The notes beneath the pieces are model-generated. The model saw only the letters and a program-made list of their open reading frames with translations, was not told the DNA's origin and searched no databases. Shown piece by piece: positions 4,118-20,072 of a DNA stretch of 20,072 bases (positions within the stretch are counted from its first letter, which is position 1; every line of letters starts with the position of its first letter). The stretch is from the IMG/VR virus record IMGVR_UViG_3300032073_000354, positions 1 to 20,072 of that record; one strand, written 5' to 3'. Made by a program: the position numbers and the translations under genes. The stretch is from a virus.

Positions 4118-4567
4118 GTGAGAGTAATACAGTTATCACCAGACTCTATAATGCAGCATTGGGAAATAATAGAAAAAGCTATTACTTCTGCTTTAACTTG
4201 TTCTGCAGGAGAGTCTAATGCTTATCAGTATCTAAAACATTTTAGTAATAACTACTATCAATGTTGGGCAGTTATAAGTAACACAGAAGAAATCATAAAT
4301 ATTACTGTAACTAAAGTAAATCATTATGATACACATAAATCGTTACACTTGTTAATTACTACCTCAGTAGGCCATAACAAGTGGGAAGACTATAAAGAAG
4401 CGCATCATACAATTGAACAGTATGCTAGAGATCAAGGTTGTAAAAGAATTGAAATGTATGGTAGACGAGGATGGTCTAGAGTTTTAAATAAACTTTCAGG
4501 ATCAAAGAAAGAAAAATACAAAGAAGTGTACGTTGTGCACTCAATGGAGTTAAAAAATGAGCTATAG
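4118..4567 (+). CDS. Small GNAT-like phage protein
   Basis: A 149-aa protein with a GTG start at 4118, preceded by AAGGA (4106-4110). The central and C-terminal parts resemble GNAT-fold proteins common in phage late regions: WAVISNTEEIINITVTK looks like paired beta strands, followed by a helix (EDYKEAHHTIEQYARDQGCK), then RIEMYGRRGWSRVLNKLSG and a last strand ending VVHSMELKNEL. No clear acetyl-CoA pyrophosphate loop (Q/R-x-x-G-x-G/A) is seen, so acetyltransferase activity is unproven. The gene sits between the fibre chaperone and the ejection-protein genes and overlaps the next gene by 11 bases. Such proteins are often encoded next to virion genes, but their role is mostly unknown. Confidence 0.5.
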   Translation: MRVIQLSPDSIMQHWEIIEKAITSALTCSAGESNAYQYLKHFSNNYYQCWAVISNTEEIINITVTKVNHYDTHKSLHLLITTSVGHNKWEDYKEAHHTIEQYARDQGCKRIEMYGRRGWSRVLNKLSGSKKEKYKEVYVVHSMELKNEL

Positions 4568-5291
4568 TATATATAATAACCCATTTATGCCTACGCGTCA
4601 CATACATCCTAGAGCATCTGGCATGATGACATTTAAAGGTGGAGGGGATACAATAGAGTCTATACCTGATTGGTATAAACCTTTTGTTGAAACTGCCGCC
4701 AGTGGTGCTCAAGCAGCCTTTGATAAAGGAGACTTAAGCAAAGTAGAAGGTTTTAATGAAATGCAAAAGCAAGGTATACAAGGCCTTGCAGATGCAGCTG
4801 GAGAAGCAGATAAACAATACGATATGGCTAAAGGAGCAACAGGTGTTCTTCAACAAGCTTCTCAAGGTGAAGGAATTTATGGAGCAGGCGCAACTGAAGC
4901 TTTAAGAAATAAAGCAATACGAGATTCACAAAAAGCCTATGCTCCAGTAGGAACTCAAATGGCTACTCAAGGTGCTATCGGTGGTGCTAGATCTCAAATA
5001 ATACAAGGAGATAGAGATGCTGCTCTTGCAGGTGCTTTAGCCGAGGTAGACTATAATGATTTAGATAAGCGCAGGACTCTGTCCACAAATGCTGCACAAG
5101 GTATTATTGGTAACACTGCAGGCATGCAAGATGCAGCAGGCTCTGGTGCTAATTACTTAGGAGAAGCAGGCGGCTTTCAACAAGAGCAATCTCAAAGAGA
5201 AGGAGATGCTGTATATCAAGGATTACAAAGACTAGGTGGACTTTTAAGCGGAGCACCTGTGCCTCAACAAGGCCCTTCAGGAGGAAAATAA
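4557..5291 (+). CDS. Putative small internal virion/ejection protein
   Basis: A 244-aa protein with ATG at 4557 inside the end of the previous gene and GGAG at 4546-4549. After a short polar N-terminus (to about 30) it has IPDWYKPFVETAASGAQAAF and then a long helix-prone stretch rich in Ala, Gly, Gln and Asp. A motif-like segment, GGARSQIIQGDRDAALAGAL, is followed by VDYNDLDKRR. The C-terminus is Gly/Pro/Gln rich. This composition and the general pattern match small virion proteins of marine phages and recall T7 gp14, the smallest ejection protein that enters the outer membrane. There is no signal peptide or strong membrane helix. Function is inferred from composition and from its place as first of five similar genes of increasing size. 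Confidence 0.5.
   Translation: MSYSIYNNPFMPTRHIHPRASGMMTFKGGGDTIESIPDWYKPFVETAASGAQAAFDKGDLSKVEGFNEMQKQGIQGLADAAGEADKQYDMAKGATGVLQQASQGEGIYGAGATEALRNKAIRDSQKAYAPVGTQMATQGAIGGARSQIIQGDRDAALAGALAEVDYNDLDKRRTLSTNAAQGIIGNTAGMQDAAGSGANYLGEAGGFQQEQSQREGDAVYQGLQRLGGLLSGAPVPQQGPSGGK
5279..5284 (+). promoter_or_regulatory. Consensus Shine-Dalgarno AGGAGG
   Basis: A full AGGAGG lies eight bases before ATG 5293 and inside the last codons of the previous gene. It fixes the start of the 359-aa gene and suggests strong translation. Confidence 0.8.
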
Positions 5292-5292
5292 C

Positions 5293-6372
5293 ATGCCTGG
5301 ATTTAAAATGGCTAATAACCCTTTAGCAGACCCTAATAAAATGGGGCAACAAAATAACGTAGTACAGTCATTGCCTCCGGGACAGGATGGACCGTTAACA
5401 GGAATTGCAGAAAGTGCTGCCCTTCCTTTAGCAGAAGCAGCAATAGGAGCAGCAAAACCAGCGTTAGCAGCAGCAAATACTGCAGGAGGATTGGCAACTG
5501 GTGCTGGCCTAAGTGCTGGACTAGGCTCTGCTGGTGCAGCTTTAGCAGCAGCCGCAGGCCCCTTTGCTTTAATGGCTTTACCTTTTTTACTTAACTATGG
5601 TACAAACAAAGTACCTGGATATGCTGATGGCTCAAGTAAAGTAAAACCTTTTGGAGATGATCCTCTTGACGCTGTTAATGAATTTTATGCTCCTTCAGGT
5701 TCAAGCTTTGTAGAGTCTCAACCATCAGGAAGTATGTTGCCAAAATTTTTTAACTACATACCCAATGCTTTTCAAGTAAGTAATTATTTAACAAGTCGTT
5801 TTAAAAAGCCTATTCCACAAGAAGGCATTGAACCTCTTCAAGGTAAGGTTAACAGAGTACAAAGAGGCGTTATAGGTGAATCGCAACTGCCAATACCCCA
5901 ACAACCTGTAATGACAACACCTCCTTCTTTAATGTCAATGCCTACAGTAACTACAGATAACATGATAGATGTAGGTAACTATGAACAACAGTTAGCAGAC
6001 TATAGAGCAGCAGGATTTAACTATGGTACTCCTTCAGTTAAGAAAAATACTAACATGTCCTATGCAAATGGGGTAGATAGTGTTCCAAGTATGTTGACTC
6101 CTGGAGAAGCAGTAATTCCTGCGCCAGCAGCTCAAAATCCTGATAATAAACCTATGATTAATGCAATGATAAACGAAGGTCGAGCTGCTAATGACATGGC
6201 AGAAATGGCAGGTCCACTTTCTGGACCAGCTCAAAGAGCACAAATGGAAGCCTTACAAACTATGGCTATGAAAAAGAAAGCTTTTGAAGCTCAAGAACTT
6301 CGTAAGCAACAAGCCTTCAATCAAAAATTAGCACTAGATAAACAGAAAGCTCTGATGTCTATGCAGACTTAA
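5293..6372 (+). CDS. Putative internal virion protein with Ala/Gly-rich hydrophobic segment and tape-measure-like motif
   Basis: A 359-aa protein. Residues 37-104 form a long Ala/Gly/Leu segment ending AAAGPFALMALPFLLNYG, which could be membrane active. Two related short motifs follow: NYGTNKVPGYADGSSKV (from about 105) and, at 257-276, YANGVDSVPSMLTPGEAVIP. The second matches the D-x-VPAMLTPGE-x-V signature common near the ends of phage tail tape-measure and some internal virion proteins. The C-terminus (about 295-359) is a Met/Gln/Lys-rich, probably coiled helix. Function in DNA ejection is inferred from context and composition, by analogy with the hydrophobic middle components of podovirus ejectosomes. 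It is too large and too central in the late operon to call a holin. Confidence 0.5.
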   Translation: MPGFKMANNPLADPNKMGQQNNVVQSLPPGQDGPLTGIAESAALPLAEAAIGAAKPALAAANTAGGLATGAGLSAGLGSAGAALAAAAGPFALMALPFLLNYGTNKVPGYADGSSKVKPFGDDPLDAVNEFYAPSGSSFVESQPSGSMLPKFFNYIPNAFQVSNYLTSRFKKPIPQEGIEPLQGKVNRVQRGVIGESQLPIPQQPVMTTPPSLMSMPTVTTDNMIDVGNYEQQLADYRAAGFNYGTPSVKKNTNMSYANGVDSVPSMLTPGEAVIPAPAAQNPDNKPMINAMINEGRAANDMAEMAGPLSGPAQRAQMEALQTMAMKKKAFEAQELRKQQAFNQKLALDKQKALMSMQT

Positions 6373-6383
6373 AGGAGTGAGTT

Positions 6384-9300
6384 ATGAGTGTAGATAGTAA
6401 AGATCCATTTGACGGTTACTTTCAAAAACTTTTAAAAACAGAAGGCGGTTATGTAAACAATAAAAATGACAGAGGCGGTAAAACAAAATTTGGAATTACT
6501 TTAAATACATTAAAAAGTGTAAATCCCAAAGCTACTGAAAAAGATCTTAGAGGTTTATCAAAAGAACAAGCTAAAAAAATATATAAAGATGAATTTTATT
6601 TAAGATATAGAATTAATGAATTACCCGCTTACATTAGAGAACAAGTTTTTGATATTGCGGTAAATTCAGGGCCAGGAACGGCAATTAAACTTATTCAAGA
6701 ATTGGCAGGGGTTAAACAAGATGGAGTAATTGGACCCAACACAATTAAAGCAGCTAGTCTTGTTACTAATAATAAACTGGCAGATAGACGACAACAATTA
6801 TATAACGCAATAGTTGAGAAAGATCCTACTCAAGAAGAATTTATAGATGGTTGGACTAATCGTGCAAATTCCTTTAGAGATAAAGAAATGACGCAAGAAG
6901 GACCTACTTCTGAAAGTACTACCTCAACTGAAACTTCTTTATCAGATGCAGATTTAGCTTCTATGAATTTAGATTCTGATCTTTTAGGCCAATATTATGA
7001 TATGGGAAATTCAAGAACAGAATCACGAGTATCAAATTTAATAGAGCAACAAAAAGTAAGAGATAAACTTAAACAAAATCAATTAGACTTAGCTGTTGCT
7101 GGAGGCGAAGGAAAAACTTTTAGACAACAAGAAAGAGAAAGTCTTCTTCAAGATTTAAAAAGGTTACAAAAAGATCCTTTAACTGCTCCAGACTATAATA
7201 AAAATATTTTGTATAGTGGATTTGATTACGGACCAGCAGTACCTCCTGTTATTTCAACAGAAATACCTGGTGAACAACTAACTGTTCCTTTAGAAAATAC
7301 AGTACAACCACTTTCAACTCCACCTCCCTCTTTAGAACCATCTAAAGAAGATTTACTATACAAAAGAAATTCTCTTTTACAGGCTCCTCCTGAATTTAAT
7401 GATGGTACTAATAAAGTTAAATACTATGAAGATGGTATAAACTTTGCTGGACTTGATTATGATTCTCCTGTGTTAATTAAACAGTATGATAACTATCTTA
7501 ACTCTTTAAATAGAGGAGTTGCACCCACTGATGTACAAAAAGCTGCAAATGATAGAGTATTGCTTTTAGCTAAACAACAAGAAAATCAAGAAGAAATAGA
7601 CTTGCTTAACAAACGAATGGCTATACAAGCAGGGGATTCTGTTGGCGCTGAATTTAATGCTGCACAACTTGCACAATTAACTCATCAAGCTAACGTACTT
7701 AATTCTCCTGAGTTTGCAAACCTACCACCTCCTCCTGAAGAGGCTCTTGGTTTTGATTTTGTACCCAGAATAATAGACAATAACAAACCTAGAGAAGTAG
7801 TTCAAGCTGGGCTAGTTCCTCCTGCACTAGAAGAAGCAGTTAGTAAAGTAAGTAGTGTACCTTCTGCTTTACCAACTACAACTTCACAATTAATAATGAG
7901 TCAACCTCCCGTAATAGAAACTGAATTTGATGTTGCAAATCAAGAAAATTCTTCTTTTGATATTAATGATACCATGAGAGGAGTATTTGAGCCTATAGGA
8001 GAAATTATACAAAATAACCCTCTTAAAGATGCTATTCGCGCAGGTAGAAAAACTATGCAACAAGAGAAACAATTAGATAACTTCTTTAATCAACAGATTG
8101 TTAATCAATCTAAAGGTGTTCCTGGAGGTAATCTTCCAGTACCAAAAGAAATACCAGGATTTGATCCAAATAATTTATTTAATAAAAAACCACCACCCTC
8201 AGATCTCTTAGAAAATGAAATACCTCCTATAACAGAAACAGAGTCTGAAGTTACTTCGGCAGGAAGTCCTCCTGTTCTACCAGAAGGTAATTTTGATCCT
8301 GGGATTTCAGGAGATACAGGATTTGATAATGGCAGAGGGTTAGCTGTTACTTCAACAGGAATTCAATTTAATGGAAAACTAGTTGCAACACCAACTCTTC
8401 CAGAAGAAAGGCAACAAATAGCAAAGCAGCTAGGTCAAGATGAAAAGTCTATTGGTAAAAAAATAACTCCTTTCTTAAAAAAGTGGTTTGGAATAGAAGG
8501 AGAAGACTTGTCTAGAGCTTTAGGATTATACCTTATGTCTAGATTAACAGGTGCTTCTCATGAAGGTTCAATGCGTTGGGCAGGTAAAACTGCTCTTGAT
8601 ACTTCTGCTAAAAGGCAAGCTTTAGAAGCTAAAACTACCTTAGCTAATGCCGAAAAGGATAAAACTATTGAAGCACTAGTAGATGCAGGTTATACAGAAG
8701 CTTCTGCTAGATCTTATGTTCAAACAAAATTAGACGATGTTTTAGTAAGATCAGGTAGTAGATCAGGTGCTCTTAAAGAAACAGGTAATTCTGTACAGGT
8801 AGGAATTAGAGGACTACCAGGATTTACTTATGCTAATGGTTATGAAGTAGAAGATCCAAGTGGTAACAAGTATAATGTATTTAGAGTACCAAATAGCGTA
8901 TTTAGAGATCCTAAACCTGGTTTTAAAACAGTTAATGAAAGTCAGTTAGCTCAATTAATTGCTAATGCTACTGGAGGTAACGGTAGAATAGTTCCTTATG
9001 ACAAAAGTATGGATACTCAAGAAGGACGCACTAAAGCAGCTATTGATTTTACTGATGGTGTATATAAAACCTATGTAAAAGAACTTTTTACTGGAGCTGA
9101 TGACAAGGTTAGACGACAAATACCAACAGCATATTCGAGTGTTGCAAGATGGATGCAGGATACTATGGAATATAAATTCTATGAGCCTGGAATTCAACAA
9201 GAAGCTCAAGTAGTATTGCTTACTGCAATGAAAGATATGAGGAATGATTTAGATTCTGGTCGTATTAGTAACGTAGATGATGCTACACCTTACGTTAAAC

Positions 9301-9599
9301 GCTCGATACTTACTTCTGCCGCTTTACCTACAGGTCAATTATGGATAACTGCAGATGGTAAAAATACTGTTAGTGCTACTAAAACAAATGAAATTTGGAG
9401 TAAGTTAAAAAGTCATAATAGCTCTCCTGCAGCCATTAAAACTAACTTTAAAAAGCTTCATCAAACTTTTGTAAGACAAAAGAAAAATGGCGACTTACCG
9501 TCTATGAGTTTAAAAAAGTCTAAAGAAAATGAGTTTTCTGTTTGGGTAATGAAAACATTAAACGATAAAGAAGCATTAGAAGTAATTTTATCAGAATAA
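6384..9599 (+). CDS. Large internal virion protein with N-terminal GH108 peptidoglycan hydrolase
   Basis: A 1071-aa protein with ATG six bases after AGGAG (6373-6377). Residues 10-160 match glycoside hydrolase family 108 followed by its peptidoglycan-binding partner (PG_binding_3): LLKTEGGYVNN with probable catalytic Glu20, then DRGGKTKFGIT, and later QVFDIAVNSGPGTAIKLIQ and KQDGVIGPNTIKAA. Residues about 170-700 are low-complexity, rich in Gln, Pro and acidic residues, with PPP runs, and look mostly unfolded or extended. The C-terminal part (about 740-1071) is more globular and unrecognised. Such an enzyme on a huge virion protein would open the peptidoglycan layer locally during DNA entry, as the lytic transglycosylase of T7 gp16 does. 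The size and neighbours argue against a free endolysin. The hydrolase call is strong; the virion location is inferred. Confidence 0.75.
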   Translation: MSVDSKDPFDGYFQKLLKTEGGYVNNKNDRGGKTKFGITLNTLKSVNPKATEKDLRGLSKEQAKKIYKDEFYLRYRINELPAYIREQVFDIAVNSGPGTAIKLIQELAGVKQDGVIGPNTIKAASLVTNNKLADRRQQLYNAIVEKDPTQEEFIDGWTNRANSFRDKEMTQEGPTSESTTSTETSLSDADLASMNLDSDLLGQYYDMGNSRTESRVSNLIEQQKVRDKLKQNQLDLAVAGGEGKTFRQQERESLLQDLKRLQKDPLTAPDYNKNILYSGFDYGPAVPPVISTEIPGEQLTVPLENTVQPLSTPPPSLEPSKEDLLYKRNSLLQAPPEFNDGTNKVKYYEDGINFAGLDYDSPVLIKQYDNYLNSLNRGVAPTDVQKAANDRVLLLAKQQENQEEIDLLNKRMAIQAGDSVGAEFNAAQLAQLTHQANVLNSPEFANLPPPPEEALGFDFVPRIIDNNKPREVVQAGLVPPALEEAVSKVSSVPSALPTTTSQLIMSQPPVIETEFDVANQENSSFDINDTMRGVFEPIGEIIQNNPLKDAIRAGRKTMQQEKQLDNFFNQQIVNQSKGVPGGNLPVPKEIPGFDPNNLFNKKPPPSDLLENEIPPITETESEVTSAGSPPVLPEGNFDPGISGDTGFDNGRGLAVTSTGIQFNGKLVATPTLPEERQQIAKQLGQDEKSIGKKITPFLKKWFGIEGEDLSRALGLYLMSRLTGASHEGSMRWAGKTALDTSAKRQALEAKTTLANAEKDKTIEALVDAGYTEASARSYVQTKLDDVLVRSGSRSGALKETGNSVQVGIRGLPGFTYANGYEVEDPSGNKYNVFRVPNSVFRDPKPGFKTVNESQLAQLIANATGGNGRIVPYDKSMDTQEGRTKAAIDFTDGVYKTYVKELFTGADDKVRRQIPTAYSSVARWMQDTMEYKFYEPGIQQEAQVVLLTAMKDMRNDLDSGRISNVDDATPYVKRSILTSAALPTGQLWITADGKNTVSATKTNEIWSKLKSHNSSPAAIKTNFKKLHQTFVRQKKNGDLPSMSLKKSKENEFSVWVMKTLNDKEALEVILSE

Positions 9600-9606
9600 G
9601 ATAAAT

Positions 9607-9611
9607 AGGAG
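9607..9611 (+). promoter_or_regulatory. Shine-Dalgarno AGGAG for the 1365-aa gene
   Basis: AGGAG lies in the 18-base gap after the previous stop codon and six bases before ATG 9618. It supports this start, which places the nuclease-like domain at the very N-terminus. Confidence 0.75.
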
Positions 9612-9617
9612 AGTAAA

Positions 9618-12600
9618 ATGTCAAACATTGATTCACTTAAAGCTGCTGTTGCAGAATTAAAAGCAGAAGGTGGTTTTGGAGAAGAAGGCATATACAAGGA
9701 TGGTATTCAAGTAATAGATGGGGATACTATTAAGGATGAAGAAGGAACTATTAGACTATCAGGTATTGATACTTCTGAAACACCTCACCTAAATCCTTAT
9801 ACTTTAGATTATGCTCCTGGCGGTGAAATCAAAGGCATACTTCAAACAGGAGAAACTGCTAACTTGATTGGTCAAGGCTTCAACCAGCCTTACCGATCAG
9901 GCGAGCAGGGTTATTTTGGTAGAGATCTTGGAGACCTTAGTAAAGAAGATGGTACTAGTTTAACTAAGACTTTACTTTCTCAAGGGTTAGCAGATCCTTC
10001 TTTGTATGCTACTCAAGATGAGTTGGCAATAAATAATATAGGGGCATTAGATAGAGCACAAAGAAAAGCTACTAGTCAAATGAACGAAGCAGACAAAAGA
10101 CGTTCTGTATTATTAGAAGCAGCTAGTTTAACTATAGGAGGAAATCCTTTTCTTCTTAAAGACACGGCTGCAACAGAAGCATACTATGCTGCTGCTCCAA
10201 ATATGTTTAGGGGCGTAGCAATGCAACGCTCTGATCGTACTATAATGAACGAAACTAAAGGTTGGCAAATTGACGATGCCTTTGCTATGGGTAAAACTAA
10301 TGGTAAAATTGGCGGCTATGCTTTTACACAACTAGTAGGAGACTTAGTAGGGTTAGATGGTTTATCTGATTTTGGAGAAGCCAACGCCGCTAGGCTCAAA
10401 AGAGAAATGCAAGACTTACCTCAACTTAGAGATATGGAAGCCTTTGATGAAAATGGAGAATGGACTTTAGATGGTATTAGTGAGTTTAGTAACTATGTAT
10501 TTAGTAATGCAGCTGCTAGTGCGCCCTTAATGGGAGTAACTATTGCTTCTCTCTATGCAGCACCCTTTACTTGGGGAACATCTTTAGCTATACCTGCAGC
10601 AATGTATTCAGGAATGACTTATGATGCACAAAACACAAAAGACGTAGGAAAAGCTTTAACTTCAGGAACTTTCCAAGCAGCCTTAGATATAATAGGAGTC
10701 AGGGGTGTAAACCCAATGAAGCTATTTACTTCTGCAGGACGCAAAAGTGCAATAACAAAAATAGCTGCTCAGAAAAAGATATCTGAAGAAGCAGCAGAGG
10801 CTTTATTATCGCAGGCAATTAAAGATCAGACAGGTAACTTTTTATCTACTACAGGTAGAGCACTATCTAAGTCAGCAAAAGTTGGTAAAAACATAGGTAA
10901 AGGTGCTTTGTATGAAGGCATTACTGAAACCACTCAGGAAGCAATTGCTCTCTGGGGAGAAGGTAATTTAGTCACACCTCAAGAAGTTAAGAATAGAATG
11001 CTTAATGCAATTGTTGCAGGTGGTACTCTTGGTGCAGGTTTTACTAGTGTTGCAGAACTTTCTTCCGGTATAAAATCTTCTAATATTACTAAAGGTAATC
11101 AGCTAGCAGACAAAACTGCTGCTCAATTAACTAACTCTCAAGATATGGAAGACTTTGGTAAAGTATTAGATGTTAATGAAGCTATAGATAAAATTAAAAC
11201 TACAAAAATTTCAGTAGAAGAAGTTAAGGATGAACCAGTAGTTAAAAAAGTTAAACCTTATAGAAACCCTAATGATGGCTTTGATGAATTTAGAATAAAA
11301 GCAGAAGAGCAAGTAATTTCTACTAACGGAGTAATTAGTCACCGTGTTGATGCTCGAGTTAAAGCACTAAAAGAAAACGTAGGTCCTGAAGCAGCAACAG
11401 CATACGCTATGGCTGCTCAAGCTAAATCGGATGAAATGATTGCAGATAGAGCGAATAAAAATAAAGCAGCTGCAAAAAAATTAAAAGTAAAACGTAGTAC
11501 AGTAGTAACCAATGAAAATGACGCAACAGAAGGAATGTCACTAAAAGAACAGGCAGCAGCTAGGTCTAAAGAAAAAGAAGATAAAGCTCTTTTAGATAAC
11601 GTAGGAGATGCAGTACCGTATTTATGGCAAGCTTCCTTAGAAAATAAATTAAAAGCTTATAAGACAGGTAAGTACGGATCAATGTTATGGAGTCTTTTAG
11701 TTGGAAAAAATGGTCGTGCTGGTCGTAATTTTGAAGAGGCACGTAGACAAAATAGTGCAGACATTGTTAGTAATAAGTATTTAGATCCTGTAGAGGGTCC
11801 GAGTAATCTTGGTTTTCAAAATACTAGAGAACTTTCAAACTCAGTAGAAGCTAGTAAAGAGGCTATTACAAGAATACTTAGACAAGCAAGAACTGTAGAA
11901 GATGTTAGAGTTATAGCAGCTAAAGAAAATATAGATTCTAGATTACTTCCTTTTATTACTGCAATATTTGAAAAGAACTTGGCAATAAGAGCAGACACAG
12001 GAATAAAAGAAGCTAACTTGTTAGAAAAAACTTTTAACAAAAGTTATATTTATAGAAATCAAAAGAAATTTATTGCTATGCTACAAACAGAATTAGGTGT
12101 TAGTGCTGAAGTTGCTATAGATATTACTCAGGCAATAATAAAAAATGAAGACTATACAAATCCAGATGATGCTTTAAGTGGTCTTTTAAACTTATCTTCT
12201 GCTCCAGATAAAGGCGCAGTGAAAAAATATGCTCAGTATAAAGATGTATTTAATGAATATCTTATGTCAAATATAATGGACAATGTACAGGCTAATGCAG
12301 TAAAATTTGGTAATGTCAAAGCTAATATAGATTATATTGGAGAAAATGGAAGTATAATTTCAAAAGGTTTAGATTTAATGAAGGCTAACAATGAAGTTGA
12401 TAGCGAAGAAAAAGCAAAATTAGCTTATGAATTAGATAAATTTTTACAACAAATTTCTGGAGAATATCATAGAGTAGACAACAGAATGTATAATACTGCA
12501 GTAAATAATGTTTCTCTATTATCTATGGTATCTATGTTACCTATGGCAGCAATTTCTTCTCTTACAGAATCAGCTTTAGTTATTTTTAGTAGTCCAAGAC

Positions 12601-13715
12601 CTTTATATGCTGCCTGGAAAATGAGTCAGTTTACTGCTAAAGAGTTTGTAGCTATTGCCAACGAAGGATTAACCGCGCTTTCTAATGGTAGAATTCCTAT
12701 GAAAGATTATTTTCACAGAGAAATGTTAAGAAAGTCAGGGTATCTATTAGAAACACAGGGTGCTGCGGCAAGACTAGGCGTTGACTCTAGTCCTTCTCAA
12801 GCTAGATTTGTACAAAGCTTTTTTAAAGTTAATGGACTTACATCCTTAACAAACATACAACGTGTTACTGCATTAGTTATGGCTGAAGACGCAGTTAATC
12901 ACTGGGTAGATCAAGCAGTGTTACAAAAAGGTGTTAATAATAGACTATATACAGAGGCATATGATAATTTAAGTTTCTTAGGAGTAAATCCTGAAATAAT
13001 GATAGAACACAAAGAAAGTTATCATGGTCTAAATGATTCTCTTAACTCTGTTATAGGTTCTTTATCTATGGCAGATAGAGAAAAATTATATTTAGAACAA
13101 ATGGAAGTTGCTAAAACAAGATTTGTAGATCAAAGAGTAATACAGCCCTTTAAAGGAAATAGACCTGAATTTTATTCAGATCCTAGATTTCGTTTATTTA
13201 CTATGTTTCAAGGTTTTATTAGTACTTTCACTGCTAATGTTTTACCTATGCTTTATGGACAAGCTTTTTCAAAAAATAGTCTTCCAGAAGCAAGAGTAAA
13301 AGCTATAACTACAATGGCAGCAATGATTGCCTTTACTTATTTTGCTCAAAATTTAAAAGATGCGTTAAAGGGTAAAGATGAAGATGACGACTTACCTCCG
13401 TTTAAAGAATTTTTAAGAACTCTTTATGGATCAGGACTAGTAGGCACAGTAGAAAGGCCACTTACAGCAATAATGCCTTTGTATGGAAATAATTCTGATA
13501 CAGGAAAATTAATAGAAGCTATGTTAGGTCCTACTGCAGGTGCTGTAACTGACTCAGTAATAGGAGAATCACCACAATTATCTTATGTAGATAATTTTGT
13601 AGGCATTTTTTCAGATGCTATGGGAGACGATCAATCAAGAATACCTCGTGATCTCTTAAAAGCAACCCCAGCAAACGTATTTAAAAATTGGTTGGCACCA
13701 ATGGAAAAGGAGTAA
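9618..13715 (+). CDS. Giant ejection protein with N-terminal staphylococcal-nuclease-like domain
   Basis: A 1365-aa protein. Residues about 26-130 read as an SNase/thermonuclease domain: VIDGDTI with Asp36, IRLSGIDTSET with Arg46, Asp51, Thr52 and Glu54, and YFGRDLGDL with Arg102. These align with D21, R35, D40, T41, E43 and R87 of staphylococcal nuclease, so all catalytic and metal-binding positions are kept. A following LLSQGLADP also matches the family. The rest resembles a T7 gp16-type channel protein: hydrophobic stretches near 298-330, 965-990, 1190-1216 and 1230-1247, separated by long helical, charged regions, with a YEGITETTQEA segment near 435. No signal peptide is present. Likely role: packed in the capsid and ejected through the envelope. 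Whether the nuclease acts on host DNA, on RNA or not at all cannot be seen. Confidence 0.68.
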   Translation: MSNIDSLKAAVAELKAEGGFGEEGIYKDGIQVIDGDTIKDEEGTIRLSGIDTSETPHLNPYTLDYAPGGEIKGILQTGETANLIGQGFNQPYRSGEQGYFGRDLGDLSKEDGTSLTKTLLSQGLADPSLYATQDELAINNIGALDRAQRKATSQMNEADKRRSVLLEAASLTIGGNPFLLKDTAATEAYYAAAPNMFRGVAMQRSDRTIMNETKGWQIDDAFAMGKTNGKIGGYAFTQLVGDLVGLDGLSDFGEANAARLKREMQDLPQLRDMEAFDENGEWTLDGISEFSNYVFSNAAASAPLMGVTIASLYAAPFTWGTSLAIPAAMYSGMTYDAQNTKDVGKALTSGTFQAALDIIGVRGVNPMKLFTSAGRKSAITKIAAQKKISEEAAEALLSQAIKDQTGNFLSTTGRALSKSAKVGKNIGKGALYEGITETTQEAIALWGEGNLVTPQEVKNRMLNAIVAGGTLGAGFTSVAELSSGIKSSNITKGNQLADKTAAQLTNSQDMEDFGKVLDVNEAIDKIKTTKISVEEVKDEPVVKKVKPYRNPNDGFDEFRIKAEEQVISTNGVISHRVDARVKALKENVGPEAATAYAMAAQAKSDEMIADRANKNKAAAKKLKVKRSTVVTNENDATEGMSLKEQAAARSKEKEDKALLDNVGDAVPYLWQASLENKLKAYKTGKYGSMLWSLLVGKNGRAGRNFEEARRQNSADIVSNKYLDPVEGPSNLGFQNTRELSNSVEASKEAITRILRQARTVEDVRVIAAKENIDSRLLPFITAIFEKNLAIRADTGIKEANLLEKTFNKSYIYRNQKKFIAMLQTELGVSAEVAIDITQAIIKNEDYTNPDDALSGLLNLSSAPDKGAVKKYAQYKDVFNEYLMSNIMDNVQANAVKFGNVKANIDYIGENGSIISKGLDLMKANNEVDSEEKAKLAYELDKFLQQISGEYHRVDNRMYNTAVNNVSLLSMVSMLPMAAISSLTESALVIFSSPRPLYAAWKMSQFTAKEFVAIANEGLTALSNGRIPMKDYFHREMLRKSGYLLETQGAAARLGVDSSPSQARFVQSFFKVNGLTSLTNIQRVTALVMAEDAVNHWVDQAVLQKGVNNRLYTEAYDNLSFLGVNPEIMIEHKESYHGLNDSLNSVIGSLSMADREKLYLEQMEVAKTRFVDQRVIQPFKGNRPEFYSDPRFRLFTMFQGFISTFTANVLPMLYGQAFSKNSLPEARVKAITTMAAMIAFTYFAQNLKDALKGKDEDDDLPPFKEFLRTLYGSGLVGTVERPLTAIMPLYGNNSDTGKLIEAMLGPTAGAVTDSVIGESPQLSYVDNFVGIFSDAMGDDQSRIPRDLLKATPANVFKNWLAPMEKE
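13708..13712 (+). promoter_or_regulatory. Shine-Dalgarno AGGAG that fixes the 13718 start
   Basis: AGGAG overlaps the last codons of the upstream gene and lies five bases before ATG 13718. An in-frame TTG at 13688 has no such site, so ATG 13718, two bases after the previous stop, is preferred. Confidence 0.8.
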
Positions 13716-13717
13716 CT

Positions 13718-16700
13718 ATGGCTAAATCACTTAATCCAGGAAAATTTTCACCTAGCGTGGAAGTTCCAGACGCAGGTACTCCTGCACCAGTAGAAGGATT
13801 ATCTCCTGAGTTATTACAACAAGTAATGGCAGCAGGAATTTCTCCTGAAATATTAATCCAACAATTACAAGCACAACAACAAGGGGCAACACAAGCGGTT
13901 GCTCCTGTTGTAAATCCTTTGGAAGACTTAGAAAGAGGAGGTGTTGCGCCACAACCAATTAGTCCTTTTTTAGATCCAGCTGGACAACAACCTCCTGCAA
14001 ATGCTCCGCAGCCTGTTGTTCCCGATCTTCAATCAACTCCAGAAGGAGTTAATATTTTAACAGATCAAGGAACAGTAGGAACAACTGCAGACCTTAGACA
14101 AGCACAGATAGATCAATTTAACACAGAAGAAGCTGAAAGAGCAAGAGGTGCAATTGGTTTTAACCAGTCCACTAGGCAACAATTTGATGAAGCTTACTCA
14201 GAAGCTTTAGCTCCTGGAAAAATAGGAGACTTACATAGGCTAGGTCGAGTAGTATCTGATGCCAGTATTGAAGGTAGATATAAAATAAAAGATTCATTAG
14301 GAATTTTACCCGAAAATGCTACTCCAGTAGAGTTAGTATCTAAAGGACTTAAAGCTTCTCCTGTAGAGGCAGTTAATGCTACTACCTTTGCTTTTTTAAA
14401 AATGTCAAATGCTTTATCAGCACGACAAAAAATTCTTGATGAAGGAGGAGAAGATCCTGCTGATACTGATGAAATACTTTCTCTTGCAGAAATAGATGCC
14501 TTACTTACTAGATCAGAGGGAGGCAGAGTTGCAATAGAAGCAGACACTTTAGATGGTATACTTGCAGGTTATACTAAAAGTACTCTTGATAGAGTTAGAA
14601 ATGCAGATAGTGGACCAACAAATCAACCAAAATTAGTAGGCAATGCACAAGCTAAAATGTTAATTAATTCTGGTTTATTAGAAGAAACTTTTTTTCAACC
14701 AGAAAATCCTAAAGGTGAAATAATTAACCCAGATAGTGTACCTATAAAAGGTTATCAAGTTACTGAGAGAGGAGCAATGGTTGCTTATGAGTTAAAAGAA
14801 CTTTCAGATTATAATAAAAGAGAGTATTCTGAGGAAGCAGGATACTCTCCTCAATCTGAGTCTAAAGCAATAAACCAACCTTTTCCTAGACGTAATGCAG
14901 TTAAAGTTCATGGTAAAACTCCTGGCACCTCAGTTGGTGCTTATAACTTGAGTAAACCTAAGGCTAAAAAGAAGGCTGCTGGAGAAAAGTCAAATCAAAA
15001 TACAGCGATTTATCAGTATGCAGAGGATTATAGACAAAGTCCAGCTAGAATGAATCCTAGAGTTATAACAGCTGCTGAAAAGTATGTTGAATATTTTAAA
15101 CAAGCTAGATCAATTAAAGAAGCAGGAGGTACTTTAACTCCGCAACAAAATAGATTGCTTGAAAACATTACTAAATTTATGAAGCTAGAAAGAGTTCCTT
15201 CAGATGCACCAGGAAGTCCTTCAAAATTAATGGCAGCAGAAAGAGCTATACAAGGTGCAAAAATGGTTGACGGGTTTATGCTACGTCATGTAGAACAACA
15301 TGGTAACTTGCTTAGATTAACTAATCAAACTGCTAATTTAAATGAACAAGAATATCCTAGAGTACATAAAGGTGCTATGGAAGGTCGTCCTCAAAATTAT
15401 GTTTTTACTGATCTTAAAATAAAATCACCTAAAGAACCAGTAATTTCTCAATCAGATTTTGCAGACTATAAAAGATGGGTAAATTCAAATGGAGATACAC
15501 CTCCCAGTATAAACATAAAGCGTACAGCTATGTTGATAGGATTAGGCTCTTGGATAGTTCCAGGATCAAGAATTAATACTACTGAATTTTTAGTAGAGAA
15601 TTTTACTATGGGTAAGCTAAGAGAATTTGGCGAGAAAGGAGATGTTCTTCAAAGATTTGTTAACGATCCTGCTGCATTAAAAGAAGAAGAGTTTATTTCA
15701 AAATTAAATGACTTTATAGAAACAGATATTTCTATAGACAAAGGAAAAATAAATGGATTTATTGCAAAAGCTTCTTTTGTTGCAGGAGATATTATTAAAG
15801 CTTTAGACAATGCTAGTCTTAGTGAACCTATTAGCTTAAATTTTAGCCCAGTTGCACCTTCAGGAGATATGTCTTCTGCTGGACTTACTCTTATGGCTTT
15901 TGATAAAGGAGACTTTGAAACAATTTCTCATGTAGGATTAATGTATACCCCTGATGGAACTTTAATGTTTGAAAAAGGTAACCCAAGAAAGATGCTTCTT
16001 GGTGAAATTACTTCTGGTTTAAAATTAAATCCAAAAACAATTCTTGGAATAAGTTCTTCTCAACAAGCAGAACTTGCAGAAGCCTTGACACCAAGATTTA
16101 ATAGTGAAGAAGGTGATGCTGGTTTTGCAGATGATTTTGGTAAAGGAGCATTAATGGTTTCTGGCTACGGTAAGTCTAGATTTTTTATGCAACCTCAAGC
16201 TAAATCTTTTTTAGAAAAGTATCCTGCTGTTGCAGAAGTATTTGATAGAGTAGCTGCAGAAAGCGATAACTATGATTCTGGAGTAGCATTAGCGAATGAA
16301 GCTATTGGTTATGGCTTACAAAGAATTAACAAATCATGGTATGCACAAATGTTAAAAAATCAAGCAACAGCAGCCATGCTTCTTGGATTTAACTTGTCAG
16401 GAAATCTATCAGATGGAAGTAAATTAAGAGTAGGAGTTAAAGAGCATACGCCCTTAAAAGATTCAGGTTATGAGTTTAAAAACCCAGAAGGAGAAGTAGT
16501 TACTACAGGAGATTTATTTAATCCTATTCCTTCTGACTCACCTAGAGCAAGATCTCCTTTAAAGTGGGATAAAGATACAGAATCTTATGCTAAGAAAAGA
16601 ATAGGTTCCTCTCAAATAAATACTGTTACTGTGTTACAAGGTATTCCTAGAGAAGTAGAAGTAAATGCAATTGCTCATAAAAGAGTTCAAGCTCGTCTTC

Positions 16701-17338
16701 AAGATCCAAATATTTATTTTGGAAATATTCACGATAATATTATGGGAGACCCAGAGTATATGGCTTTGTTTCAACATGAAGTAAAAGCTGCTTTAAAACA
16801 AGTTACAAAACATGACCTTCAAAAAACTATAATAGATAGTTTTGAAGAGAATGCACAAAAAGTTCTAAGGCGTATAAAAGCAATGGATTCTGAGATAGTA
16901 ATTGGTGCAAGCTCAAAAGATCCTGCTTTATCTGGTTGGATAGAATACTTAGATGAAGTATATGCAGAGTATAAAGAAAATCTATTAAAAGATTCTAACT
17001 ATGAATCCTTTAAATGGAGTAACGCTCGAACAGAAAAGCTATTAAGAAAAGCTTATAGAGGTGGCGAAGGAATTTGGAAACCATTAGGAAAACCAGGAGT
17101 AACTCAATCAATTGGTGGCACTGTTTTAGAAGAAAGACAACCAAGTGAAACAGTAGCTATGGTTGTTTCCAGAGATACTCTTTTAAAGTTTATAAGCTCT
17201 GAACTTATGTTTCCTTTGCAAGAAACTATTAGAAGCAAAAATAAAACTGATTTATATACTAGACCAAAATTATTTAATGAAACATTTGAGTTTTTAGAAA
17301 ATAATGAACAAGGTTGGATGAAAATTGGTAGACCATAA
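13718..17338 (+). CDS. Large virion protein with a divergent single-subunit RNA-polymerase-like C-terminal half
   Basis: A 1206-aa protein, last gene of the late operon. Residues 1-130 are Pro/Gln rich. The middle is helical and unrecognised. From about 600 onward the order of T7/N4-type polymerase motifs appears: PGSR with Arg618 and then ENFTMGKLREF (compare GRVY...NPQGND in T7); LNFSPVAPSG at 707-716, where motif A would be; KGALMVSGYG with Lys809 and Tyr817 (T7 motif B is K-x7-YG); and GNIHDN with His1005-Asp1006 (motif C HD). Spacings R to A 92, A to B 99 and B to C 197 compare with 112, 94 and 181 in T7. Against full activity, the motif-A aspartate appears as Ser710 and the motif-B arginine as Asp805. 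It may be a very divergent virion polymerase of N4 type, a degenerate copy, or a chance match. The virion role is inferred from position. Confidence 0.5.
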   Translation: MAKSLNPGKFSPSVEVPDAGTPAPVEGLSPELLQQVMAAGISPEILIQQLQAQQQGATQAVAPVVNPLEDLERGGVAPQPISPFLDPAGQQPPANAPQPVVPDLQSTPEGVNILTDQGTVGTTADLRQAQIDQFNTEEAERARGAIGFNQSTRQQFDEAYSEALAPGKIGDLHRLGRVVSDASIEGRYKIKDSLGILPENATPVELVSKGLKASPVEAVNATTFAFLKMSNALSARQKILDEGGEDPADTDEILSLAEIDALLTRSEGGRVAIEADTLDGILAGYTKSTLDRVRNADSGPTNQPKLVGNAQAKMLINSGLLEETFFQPENPKGEIINPDSVPIKGYQVTERGAMVAYELKELSDYNKREYSEEAGYSPQSESKAINQPFPRRNAVKVHGKTPGTSVGAYNLSKPKAKKKAAGEKSNQNTAIYQYAEDYRQSPARMNPRVITAAEKYVEYFKQARSIKEAGGTLTPQQNRLLENITKFMKLERVPSDAPGSPSKLMAAERAIQGAKMVDGFMLRHVEQHGNLLRLTNQTANLNEQEYPRVHKGAMEGRPQNYVFTDLKIKSPKEPVISQSDFADYKRWVNSNGDTPPSINIKRTAMLIGLGSWIVPGSRINTTEFLVENFTMGKLREFGEKGDVLQRFVNDPAALKEEEFISKLNDFIETDISIDKGKINGFIAKASFVAGDIIKALDNASLSEPISLNFSPVAPSGDMSSAGLTLMAFDKGDFETISHVGLMYTPDGTLMFEKGNPRKMLLGEITSGLKLNPKTILGISSSQQAELAEALTPRFNSEEGDAGFADDFGKGALMVSGYGKSRFFMQPQAKSFLEKYPAVAEVFDRVAAESDNYDSGVALANEAIGYGLQRINKSWYAQMLKNQATAAMLLGFNLSGNLSDGSKLRVGVKEHTPLKDSGYEFKNPEGEVVTTGDLFNPIPSDSPRARSPLKWDKDTESYAKKRIGSSQINTVTVLQGIPREVEVNAIAHKRVQARLQDPNIYFGNIHDNIMGDPEYMALFQHEVKAALKQVTKHDLQKTIIDSFEENAQKVLRRIKAMDSEIVIGASSKDPALSGWIEYLDEVYAEYKENLLKDSNYESFKWSNARTEKLLRKAYRGGEGIWKPLGKPGVTQSIGGTVLEERQPSETVAMVVSRDTLLKFISSELMFPLQETIRSKNKTDLYTRPKLFNETFEFLENNEQGWMKIGRP

Positions 17339-17914: not shown

Positions 17915-17920
17915 TCACCT
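17915..17920 (-). promoter_or_regulatory. Shine-Dalgarno AGGTGA overlapping the polymerase stop codon
   Basis: On the - strand TAG-GTGAAAC-ATG joins the polymerase stop to the 82-aa start, so AGGTGA overlaps the stop codon. The short spacer and overlap suggest that ribosomes finishing the polymerase restart on the small gene. Confidence 0.6.
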
Positions 17921-20072
17921 ATGAAAAGAAGTTACGAGAACTAAGAACAGAGATGATATCTAACTCACCTAGCTCTGGAACTTCTATCGTACAGTTATTG
18001 TTAGTAATATAACGTTTAACTGATTCTAGAGGGTTATTATCGTTGTACATTTCAACGAATTTTTCCTGTGTTAATTGTTTTAATTTGTTAACATCAGAGG
18101 CATGACAACTAAAGCTATCATGAACGGCACCAAAGTTAACACCGAATTCATCTATAACAAGTGCCATGTGTGTAGCATCTTGAGAATGGATGTAGTTAGG
18201 AGAGATACCTGCACTGGCTTCTCTTCTGTTAGTAGTTTCTAAATATATTTTAGCTACATGGTTTATACGGCCAGGTTGTTTAGATGCACCGCCTATTACT
18301 CCTCTTAAAGTAGACTTACAAGTATCTTGTCTTGTAGCGTTTACTTTGTAGATAACAGGAAAACCAGACTTAGTCATCCAACGAATGTCTTCGCCTGCAT
18401 GACCTTTAACTAGCACTAAATTACAATCAGAAATCTTAGAGTTTATTTTATCTAAAGCAAGAGTATTTTCTGCAGTGGGATTTGCACGTTGTTCTTTGTT
18501 TGCTTCACGAGCAAGTTTTTTATATTTGTTTATTGTAGTATTAGATACTTTGTTACCTGCTTTATCTTGATATTCAAAGGTACCTAACTCCCACTGAGCT
18601 AAGTCTTGGAGAAACTTCATAGTAGTTTGAGAGCCTGGACATACGTGTTCTATTGCATCAAGTATATGTATAGCAAGAGCATCACAGTCTATTTGAGTAA
18701 TGTTATACTGCTCATCTGCGCCAGCTTGAACACAATCAGAGTACATTGACTCGGCTATTGTTTGAGCACCCGCAGAATAAGCTCTAGTCATAGTAGCTCT
18801 TTTTGAAATGAGCTTTCTTATCTCTGCATAAGACATGGGTCTGTCTTTAAAGAAATCAGGAGCTAGTTCTACTAGCTTTTGAGCTACCTTTACATATAAG
18901 TCATGAGGCACTGCACTATCATTTAATGCAACTAAACTACCTGTCTTATTATCTCTAGAAATAGCTGCAGAATGTTGGTAGCCGTTACAAGTACCATCTA
19001 TAGCAACAGGTATACTTGAAGTAGGAGTGTTTCCTTCTTCTTCCATGTCTGCAATATCACACCATTCAATACAACAAGCTAAAAACACTACTGGTTTTTC
19101 ACACTCATGTAGTATTCCTTGTTCTCCTGTCTTTTCTATAAGCTCCCAGTTATTATTAAACCAGTTTACTCTGTCGTCAAGAGAAAATTTGTCTACACTA
19201 ATAGTGTCTATGCCTTCTTTATGTAGCATAGAGTAATAGTCTTCTTCAACCCAGTCAGGTATTTCATTAACATTATATTTTTGGTTATAAGAGTTAGCAG
19301 TATGTATAGCAAGAGAACTTTTTCCATCGTCATCAATAGGTTTGCTTTCACTAAAGGACATTAGCCCTCTTGCAATATCATTGCCTTGATAGTTCATGTA
19401 AGGTTCTTTATAATATACTCTACCTCTATAGTCTAAGTCTACTAACGAGTAAAAGTGATCCCACTCTGCTAGTTGTTTTGCCTTGCCTAAAGTAGTTTTA
19501 ATTTCAGCTCTTTTAGCTCTTACTTGTAAAGGTCTAAGAGTCTTTTCCCATTCTTTGGCTATGTTATTATAAGAATTTTTATTATGAGAAGAAGGATTCT
19601 TTTGGTACTTTTCATAGGCAGTTTTAAGTAAGCTTTTAGGTATTGCATTAACATACATTGGTATATCTTTAGGCATTATGTTTTGTAAGTTGTTTATTAA
19701 CACAGCTAAAACTTTTGAATTTATTTTCCAAGAAGTTTGTTGCAATTTATTAGCTGCTCGAACAAAAGGAGAATCAATAAAAATATTATTGAAAGCATCT
19801 TTTTGAGCTTGAGGAGCAGAAATACCCCACCGTTTTATTAGAGGGTAATTTTTAGGTTGCATGATATGATGTATGTCTTCAGGCATTTCATCAACAGTAT
19901 AAACTAATAGGCCTTTACTTTCTATTAGTTTAAACTCACCAATTTCTTCCCAACGATCAGTTGGTTCAATCATGTAAGGAGCTTGAGCATTATAAGCACC
20001 AAACCCCTCTGCTCTTTTAACTATAATAAAACCAGATTGGACATAAGCTTCTAATACTAAGTCACCTGTTCT
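17919..20072 (-). CDS. T7-like single-subunit DNA-directed RNA polymerase (N-terminus beyond right edge)
   Basis: The frame continues without a stop from the Met at 19973 to the right edge (visible start RTGDLVLEAYVQSGFIIV), so the gene is cut by the window; 717 codons are visible. Numbering from that internal Met: DYRGRVYY with Arg185 and then NYQGND, matching the T7 DWRGR motif; motif A IDGTCNGYQH with metal-binding Asp326; motif B KRATMTRAYS with Lys391 and Tyr399; SPNYIHSQD; motif C HDSF with His618 and Asp619; and a C-terminus of SSRNFFS, like the FAFA foot of T7. All catalytic metal and nucleotide residues are present, so it should be active. It transcribes phage genes from its own promoters in the host cytoplasm. 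The DGTCNG form is closer to mitochondrial-type sequences than T7's DGSCSG. Two small genes follow in the same operon. Confidence 0.95.
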   Translation of the reverse strand, partial: RTGDLVLEAYVQSGFIIVKRAEGFGAYNAQAPYMIEPTDRWEEIGEFKLIESKGLLVYTVDEMPEDIHHIMQPKNYPLIKRWGISAPQAQKDAFNNIFIDSPFVRAANKLQQTSWKINSKVLAVLINNLQNIMPKDIPMYVNAIPKSLLKTAYEKYQKNPSSHNKNSYNNIAKEWEKTLRPLQVRAKRAEIKTTLGKAKQLAEWDHFYSLVDLDYRGRVYYKEPYMNYQGNDIARGLMSFSESKPIDDDGKSSLAIHTANSYNQKYNVNEIPDWVEEDYYSMLHKEGIDTISVDKFSLDDRVNWFNNNWELIEKTGEQGILHECEKPVVFLACCIEWCDIADMEEEGNTPTSSIPVAIDGTCNGYQHSAAISRDNKTGSLVALNDSAVPHDLYVKVAQKLVELAPDFFKDRPMSYAEIRKLISKRATMTRAYSAGAQTIAESMYSDCVQAGADEQYNITQIDCDALAIHILDAIEHVCPGSQTTMKFLQDLAQWELGTFEYQDKAGNKVSNTTINKYKKLAREANKEQRANPTAENTLALDKINSKISDCNLVLVKGHAGEDIRWMTKSGFPVIYKVNATRQDTCKSTLRGVIGGASKQPGRINHVAKIYLETTNRREASAGISPNYIHSQDATHMALVIDEFGVNFGAVHDSFSCHASDVNKLKQLTQEKFVEMYNDNNPLESVKRYITNNNCTIEVPELGELDIISVLSSRNFFS

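What the first reader, a model, noticed from the sequence alone, without database searches (positions are those of the whole stretch)
9693..10010. Intact staphylococcal-nuclease domain at the front of a giant ejection protein
Residues 26-130 of the 1365-aa protein keep all aligned key residues of staphylococcal nuclease (Asp36, Arg46, Asp51, Thr52, Glu54, Arg102). The rest looks like a T7 gp16-type membrane channel protein. A nuclease in a particle full of DNA must be kept inactive until ejection, perhaps by lack of calcium or by folding state. It could cut host DNA, feed nucleotides or clear a defence at the entry point.
Basis: partly seen in the sequence, partly recalled or inferred. Interest (0 to 1): 0.7.

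Follow-up and report, generated by a model that had tools for sequence, protein, structure and literature searches.

The report
Nuclease-tipped phage DNA-entry protein
A short-tailed phage related to an ocean phage carries, on the front of a giant protein that is probably shot into the host with its DNA, what looks like a working DNA-cutting enzyme of the staphylococcal-nuclease type, which raises the question of how the particle avoids cutting its own genome.

Summary
Residues 28-138 of the 1365-aa protein (window 9618-13715) model as a staphylococcal-nuclease fold (VIA Z about 10, 2.3-3.2 A over 95-102 residues), with SNase residues Asp19/Asp21/Arg35/Asp40/Glu43/Arg87 present as D34/D36/R46/D51/E54/R102. 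The same N-terminal fusion is in all 14 records that reach the N-terminus (10 distinct proteins), including Roseobacter podophage CRP-7 gp34, at down to 20% identity. Five of the six residues are invariant in 14 of 14; R102 is kept in 12 of 14. The domain is under purifying selection. The two distant C-terminal relatives (Pseudomonas phages SCYZ1, BroderSalsa) lack it.

The protein is very probably an ejection protein: giant-gene trio before a convergent RNA polymerase, homology to a SCYZ1 'particle protein', no cysteine, wall-lytic upstream neighbour. Homology to T7 gp16 was not detectable. 'No calcium in the particle' is an unlikely safety catch: SNase packaged in T4 heads is switched on by outside Ca2+ and destroys the genome (PMC9026906). 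Sequestration or an inactive fold until ejection is more likely. Activity, virion presence and target are untested. New variant of a known kind.

The parts
9618..13715 (+). 1365-aa ejection-type protein with N-terminal nuclease domain; no cysteine
   Evidence: (PHROG 6958 E 4.6e-17 at residues 907-1316)
9699..10031 (+). staphylococcal-nuclease-fold domain, residues 28-138
9717..9725 (+). codons 34-36 with D34 and D36 (SNase D19, D21)
   Evidence: both invariant in 14 of 14 records
9753..9755 (+). codon of R46 (SNase R35)
   Evidence: invariant in 14 of 14
9768..9779 (+). codons 51-54: D51, T52, S53, E54 (SNase D40, T41, P42, E43)
   Evidence: D51 and E54 in 14 of 14, T52 only in the window protein
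9921..9923 (+). codon of R102 (SNase R87)
   Evidence: R in 12 of 14, G in L025 and L032
9607..9611 (+). AGGAG ribosome-binding site of the ejection protein
   Evidence: read from sequence
6384..9599 (+). 1071-aa neighbour with N-terminal glycosyl hydrolase 108 and peptidoglycan-binding domain; no cysteine; probable wall-cutting ejection protein
   Evidence: (GH108 E 1.4e-24)
13718..17338 (+). third giant protein (about 1206 aa from the ATG behind AAAGGAG; the listed TTG start at 13688 lies inside the previous gene); no cysteine; no family found
4557..5291 (+). 244-aa protein of the same block, no cysteine
5293..6372 (+). 359-aa protein with an Ala/Gly-rich hydrophobic stretch (seen by eye), no cysteine
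17919..20072 (-). single-subunit phage RNA polymerase (runs off the window), convergent with the late genes
   Evidence: (RNA_pol E 1.3e-57)

Best explanation
The protein is one of three giant ejection proteins of a CRP-7-type podophage. Its N-terminal domain of about 110 residues is a catalytically equipped, probably Ca2+-dependent, SNase-type nuclease carried in the particle and delivered with the DNA-entry channel at the start of infection. In the particle it must be held inactive by its place or fold in the core, not by absence of calcium. After ejection it refolds and cuts nucleic acid at or near the entry point. By position it replaces the N-terminal transglycosylase of T7 gp16, which sits in the periplasm, while wall cutting is done by the neighbouring protein; a calcium-rich periplasm is therefore the likeliest place of action, and host or foreign DNA met there or just inside the likeliest substrate. 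Shown: fold of the model, residues, conservation, purifying selection, gene context. Inferred: virion presence, activity, silencing, compartment, substrate.
For: SNase fold and residue match. The fusion is in 14 of 14 records that cover the N-terminus, in proteins down to 20% identical; five of six catalytic positions are among only 15 invariant columns of 111 (hypergeometric P 1.3e-4). For ten of the records the search was not steered to the active site: four contigs by peptides outside the domain, five contigs by CRP-7 peptides of which one lies just before it, and CRP-7 by its C-terminal match. Nonsynonymous change in the domain is lower than in the rest in 7 of 8 pairs compared. Ejection-protein nature: homology to SCYZ1 'particle protein' (hhalign 99%, E 2.6e-18) and PHROG 6958 'virion structural protein'; the three giant proteins of CRP-7 have 0 Cys in 3826 aa while 24 other CRP-7 genes examined have 53 in 5222; T7 gp15 and gp16 also have none. 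Wall-cutting domains sit in the upstream neighbour: GH108 in the window, Pesticin-type lysozyme in CRP-7, GH19 in L003, SLT in L032. T7 gp16 residues 1-156 contain the periplasmic transglycosylase (PMC8954989 passage).
Against: No activity or proteomics. Pfam score under the curated cut-off. L025 and L032 have lost R102, which SNase needs for full speed (recalled), yet keep the domain. A window-free profile does not find SNase. T7 gp16 homology not detected, so the periplasmic placing is by analogy only. A packaged active SNase would threaten the phage genome (PMC9026906).
Confidence: 0.55

Rival explanations
1. The domain is a retained OB fold that binds DNA or a partner in the core or channel and no longer needs catalysis; the acidic cluster is kept for metal or fold.
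For: R102 is lost in 2 of 14 records with the domain kept; a virion that carries a live Ca2+-dependent nuclease is dangerous to itself (PMC9026906).
Against: The catalytic set is kept more strictly than the rest of the domain (5 of 6 positions among 15 invariant of 111 columns); R102 is kept in 12 of 14, including L033, the nearest relative (54%) of the pair that lost it.
Confidence: 0.2
2. The nuclease acts in the host cytoplasm after entry, cutting the host chromosome, a resident plasmid or prophage, to stop host functions or feed nucleotides.
For: In T7, gp16 reaches the cytoplasm with its C-terminal part (PMC8954989 passages); DNase domains in injected polyvalent proteins have been proposed to degrade host or rival DNA (PMC5512222 passages).
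Against: The domain is N-terminal, the end that is periplasmic in T7; the phage's own DNA would enter beside it; cytosolic Ca2+ is low (recalled).
Confidence: 0.12
3. The nuclease works late, in the producing cell, before it is packaged: for example to break down host DNA, with the particle only a place where it ends up.
For: The gene lies in the late block with virion genes and would be made in quantity.
Against: Cytosolic free Ca2+ is low (recalled) and SNases are Ca2+ enzymes; replicating phage DNA shares the compartment; a fusion to the ejection protein is an odd way to act in the producing cell.
Confidence: 0.1
4. Chance resemblance; no SNase relationship.
For: Weak single-sequence E-values; Pfam under its cut-off; a window-free profile fails.
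Against: Sequence profile, fold match and residue identity agree.
Confidence: 0.03

Closest known systems
Roseobacter phage CRP-7 gp34 (MK613349.1, QBQ72827.1, annotated 'hypothetical protein')
   Same: Same length class (1368 aa), same place in the genome, same N-terminal motif with all six residues, homologous C-terminal region.
   Different: Only 20-23% identical overall to the window clade; upstream protein carries a Pesticin-type lysozyme domain, not GH108.
Staphylococcal nuclease / thermonuclease (PF00565)
   Same: Fold and active-site residues.
   Different: There a small secreted enzyme (recalled); here a domain at the front of a 1365-aa phage protein.
T7 gp16 (internal virion protein with N-terminal transglycosylase)
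   Same: Giant, cysteine-free, in an ejection gene block, enzyme domain at the N-terminus.
   Different: The enzyme here is a nuclease, not a wall cutter; no detectable sequence homology.
Pseudomonas phage SCYZ1 and BroderSalsa particle/structural proteins (PHROG 6958)
   Same: Homologous C-terminal region of about 400 residues.
   Different: No SNase domain in the protein or elsewhere in either genome at the sensitivity used.
Engineered T4 particles with packaged SNase (Mullaney and Black 1998, as told in PMC9026906; the 1998 paper itself was not seen)
   Same: SNase in a phage head.
   Different: Man-made; Ca2+ added outside killed those phages within minutes (passage), which a marine phage could not afford.
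Polyvalent proteins with ParB-like DNases (PMC5512222)
   Same: Large injected proteins with nuclease domains.
   Different: The terms SNase, staphylococcal nuclease and thermonuclease do not occur in that paper's main text.

Membership tests
Staphylococcal nuclease (SNase) superfamily | SNase OB-fold | tested here: met
   Foldseek: all 50 rows shown are SNase, E 3.2e-4 to 1.1e-3; VIA Z 9.9-10.3, 2.3-3.2 A, 95-102 residues; on a model of middling confidence
Staphylococcal nuclease (SNase) superfamily | catalytic and metal residues D19/D21/R35/D40/E43/R87 | tested here: met
   all six in the window protein; 5 in 14 of 14 records, R87 equivalent in 12 of 14
Staphylococcal nuclease (SNase) superfamily | sequence kinship to known SNases | tested here: inconclusive
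   For: E 2e-5 best row with the nine-member profile; PHROG 452 8.6e-5. Against: Pfam 18.9 bits under cut-off 21, and 1 of 9 members hits Pfam SNase at E 0.1; window-free profile fails
Staphylococcal nuclease (SNase) superfamily | Ca2+-dependent cleavage of DNA and RNA | not testable with these tools
   needs the purified domain
T7 gp16-type ejection proteins | sequence homology to T7 gp16 | tested here: inconclusive
   hhalign probability 0.4%; indirect weak link through SCYZ1 to PHROG 342, E 0.0026
T7 gp16-type ejection proteins | N-terminal transglycosylase | tested here: not met
   N-terminal domain is SNase-like; the wall-lytic domain is in the upstream gene
T7 gp16-type ejection proteins | present in the virion and ejected | not testable with these tools
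   only gene context, homology to SCYZ1 'particle protein' and lack of Cys
PHROG 6958 virion structural protein | match to the family profile | tested here: met
   E 4.6e-17, best stretch residues 907-1316

The most novel reading that the evidence does not exclude
A natural phage particle carries its own live, calcium-dependent DNase in the ejection core, in a marine setting where calcium cannot serve as the switch; the enzyme is armed only by passing through the tail and refolding in the envelope, and serves as an entry-site weapon that destroys competing or defending DNA while the phage's own DNA is shielded inside the channel.
Probability: 0.25. Interest if true: 0.8.

Novelty: new variant of a known kind. 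Interest (0 to 1): 0.52.

Why it matters
Enzymes on ejection proteins are known as wall cutters or polymerases; a conserved nuclease there sets up a clean paradox, because an SNase placed artificially in T4 heads destroys the genome when Ca2+ is added (PMC9026906). How a natural phage avoids this bears on what fold and place ejection proteins have in the particle and where their domains go after entry. CRP-7 is cultured, so the question can be tested.

Tried and rejected
Chance resemblance was tested and rejected. Descent from T7 gp16 was tested with hhalign and not found. The C-terminal 506 residues were modelled with nine sequences; pLDDT 38.7, so no fold search was made with that model. A solved-structure search with the whole-protein profile found nothing relevant. 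Relatives were sought in bacterial and archaeal genomes: 156 stretches matched a pattern, none encodes a relative, so no prophage forms were seen. The thought that the pair that lost R102 (L025/L032) evolves faster in the domain was tested: 12 of 104 against 65 of 1220 residues differ (P 0.015), but the difference is not significant once synonymous change is counted (22 and 148 synonymous codons; P 0.56); I make no claim from it. Hydropathy found hydrophobic stretches only behind the nuclease domain; they differ between clades, so I draw no topology from them.

Rows dropped: L029 and L030 begin after the N-terminal domain and were left out of the 14 records. Loci that repeat the same contig (L009-L012, L014, L016-L024, L031, L034-L041, L045) were counted once. 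L002/L003/L004 and L015/L027/L028 are identical in the protein to the nearest percent, so 14 records are 10 distinct proteins. Bias: the scans used a peptide pattern that contains D51, E54 and T55, so they favour relatives with the active site; L025 came, L032 and L033.

Literature searches for SNase or nuclease domains in ejection or internal virion proteins: 0 papers; 4; 6; 0; 7; 0; 10, 8 listed; no title or abstract start in those listings describes such a fusion. The library lacks most subscription journals. Papers read: only passages returned by term searches, of PMC6918029, PMC12629253, PMC5512222, PMC8954989, PMC8402733, PMC9026906 and PMC11440229; the rest were seen in search listings alone. 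BFVD already holds a 1342-aa 'Staphylococcal nuclease (SNase-like), OB-fold' protein of an uncultured phage (A0A6J5NQ80), so the combination of SNase with a giant phage protein has been labelled before.

Full report
What is there. The window is the late region of a CRP-7-type podophage: a head/tail structural gene (3-1433), a fibre-like gene (1463-3712), two small proteins, then a block of five proteins (4557-17338) and, on the other strand, a single-subunit RNA polymerase. The own record is a virus fragment of 20072 bases. The closest cultured phage found is Roseobacter phage CRP-7 (58.1 kb, podovirus, marine RCA roseobacter host; record, passages of PMC6918029). Its gp34, in the same place, is annotated 'hypothetical protein'.

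The nuclease domain. The first 161 residues alone find staphylococcal nuclease in the PDB with E 0.0055, and the alignment puts D34, D36, R46, D51, T52, E54 and R102 on SNase D19, D21, R35, D40, T41, E43 and R87 (SNase numbering follows the chain positions printed there). Profiles of seven and nine homologous domains find SNase with best E 0.0015 and 2e-5. PHROG 452 'endonuclease' is hit at 8.6e-5 and Pfam SNase at 0.0022 with the domain alone, the latter under its curated cut-off. Of nine members scanned, only the window protein hits Pfam SNase at E 0.1, and a profile of six members without the window clade finds no SNase. The AlphaFold model (seven sequences; pLDDT 65.7, core blocks 75-87) gives, for all 50 PDB rows shown by Foldseek, SNase, and VIA-align gives Z 9.9-10.3 with 2.3-3.2 A over 95-102 residues, model residues 28-138. 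Among viral predicted structures the best match is a 1368-aa protein, which has the length of CRP-7 gp34 (the accession was not tied to it), followed by small viral proteins, several of them named nucleases.

Conservation. Scans of viral contigs gave 14 distinct contigs with a relative. Two are cut off before the N-terminus. The other 12, CRP-7 and the window make 14 records and 10 distinct proteins, in three clades that share 20-27% identity between them. All 14 have the domain at the N-terminus. D34, D36, R46, D51 and E54 are in 14 of 14; R102 in 12 of 14 (G in L025 and L032); T52 only in the window protein. Only 15 of 111 columns are invariant, and five of the six catalytic positions are among them (P 1.3e-4). 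Some scans favoured the motif (see Tried and rejected), but the four contigs, the five N-terminus-bearing contigs and CRP-7 were found through other parts of the protein. In 7 of 8 pairs compared the domain has fewer nonsynonymous changes per site than the rest (for example 0.111 against 0.194, window with L003); the exception is L025/L032, where the excess is not significant once synonymous change is considered.

An ejection protein. The C-terminal third matches PHROG 6958 'virion structural protein' and the SCYZ1 'particle protein' (hhalign 99%, E 2.6e-18). SCYZ1 and BroderSalsa do not have the nuclease domain anywhere in their genomes at this sensitivity. The three giant proteins of CRP-7 contain no cysteine in 3826 residues, whereas 24 other CRP-7 genes examined have 53 in 5222; a smaller block member, gp36, has four (29 of the 72 annotated features of the record were used). 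The window's five block proteins have none, and nor do T7 gp15 and gp16; T7 gp14 and L025 have one each. The upstream neighbour bears an exchangeable wall-cutting domain: GH108 in the window, Pesticin-type lysozyme in CRP-7 and L013, GH19 in L003, SLT in L032; none was found in L025 or in the partial genes of L015 and L033. So the wall-cutting domain is swapped while the nuclease stays. T7 gp16 itself is not a detectable homologue.

How it probably works. T7 gp16 carries its transglycosylase in residues 1-156, which lie in the periplasm beside the tunnel, while its C-terminal part goes on to the cytoplasm (PMC8954989 passages). By analogy the nuclease would end up in the periplasm. In T4, SNase fused to an internal protein was packaged, and Ca2+ added from outside then led to destruction of the DNA and of the infectivity within minutes (PMC9026906 passage). 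A marine phage lives in roughly 10 mM Ca2+ (recalled), so calcium starvation is not a credible safety catch; sequestration in the core, or an inactive fold that is completed after passage through the tail, is. After ejection, the domain would find calcium in the periplasm. What it cuts there or beyond is open: incoming DNA of competitors, host DNA near the membrane, or DNA in the cytoplasm. These steps are inference.

Verdict. It is a new variant of a known kind: an ejection protein with an enzyme at its tip, the enzyme being a nuclease. No paper on such a fusion appeared in the listings.

Noticed in passing
L003 15848-18898 against L013 16622-19672: Two contigs are 98% identical over 3051 bases covering the RNA polymerase region (RNAP protein 99%), yet their nuclease-bearing ejection proteins are 23% identical; the match ends just behind the ejection block, as if the ejection cassette had been swapped whole.
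   Followed up: partly
window 6384-9599; L003 4402-7998; L006 8778-12449; L032 5362-8988: The upstream giant protein carries a different wall-cutting domain in different relatives (GH108, GH19, Pesticin-type lysozyme, SLT).
   Followed up: partly
window 4557-17338: Five consecutive proteins (4255 aa as listed) have no cysteine, as with T7 gp15 and gp16; this may be a general mark of ejection proteins that must unfold and cross the envelope.
   Followed up: partly
window 13688-13718: The ORF list starts the third giant gene at a TTG inside the previous gene; an ATG at 13718 behind AAAGGAG is the likelier start.
   Followed up: yes
L025:12904-16728: The third giant protein of one relative gives a sub-threshold Pfam match to an arterivirus nsp7 model (E 0.0006, 20.4 bits, cut-off 27), presumably chance.
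   Followed up: no
outside the window: BFVD entries A0A6J5NQ80, A0A516LXN0_1, A7KUR9_2: Other giant viral proteins whose predicted structures contain a match to the SNase model; whether they are ejection proteins was not examined.
   Followed up: no
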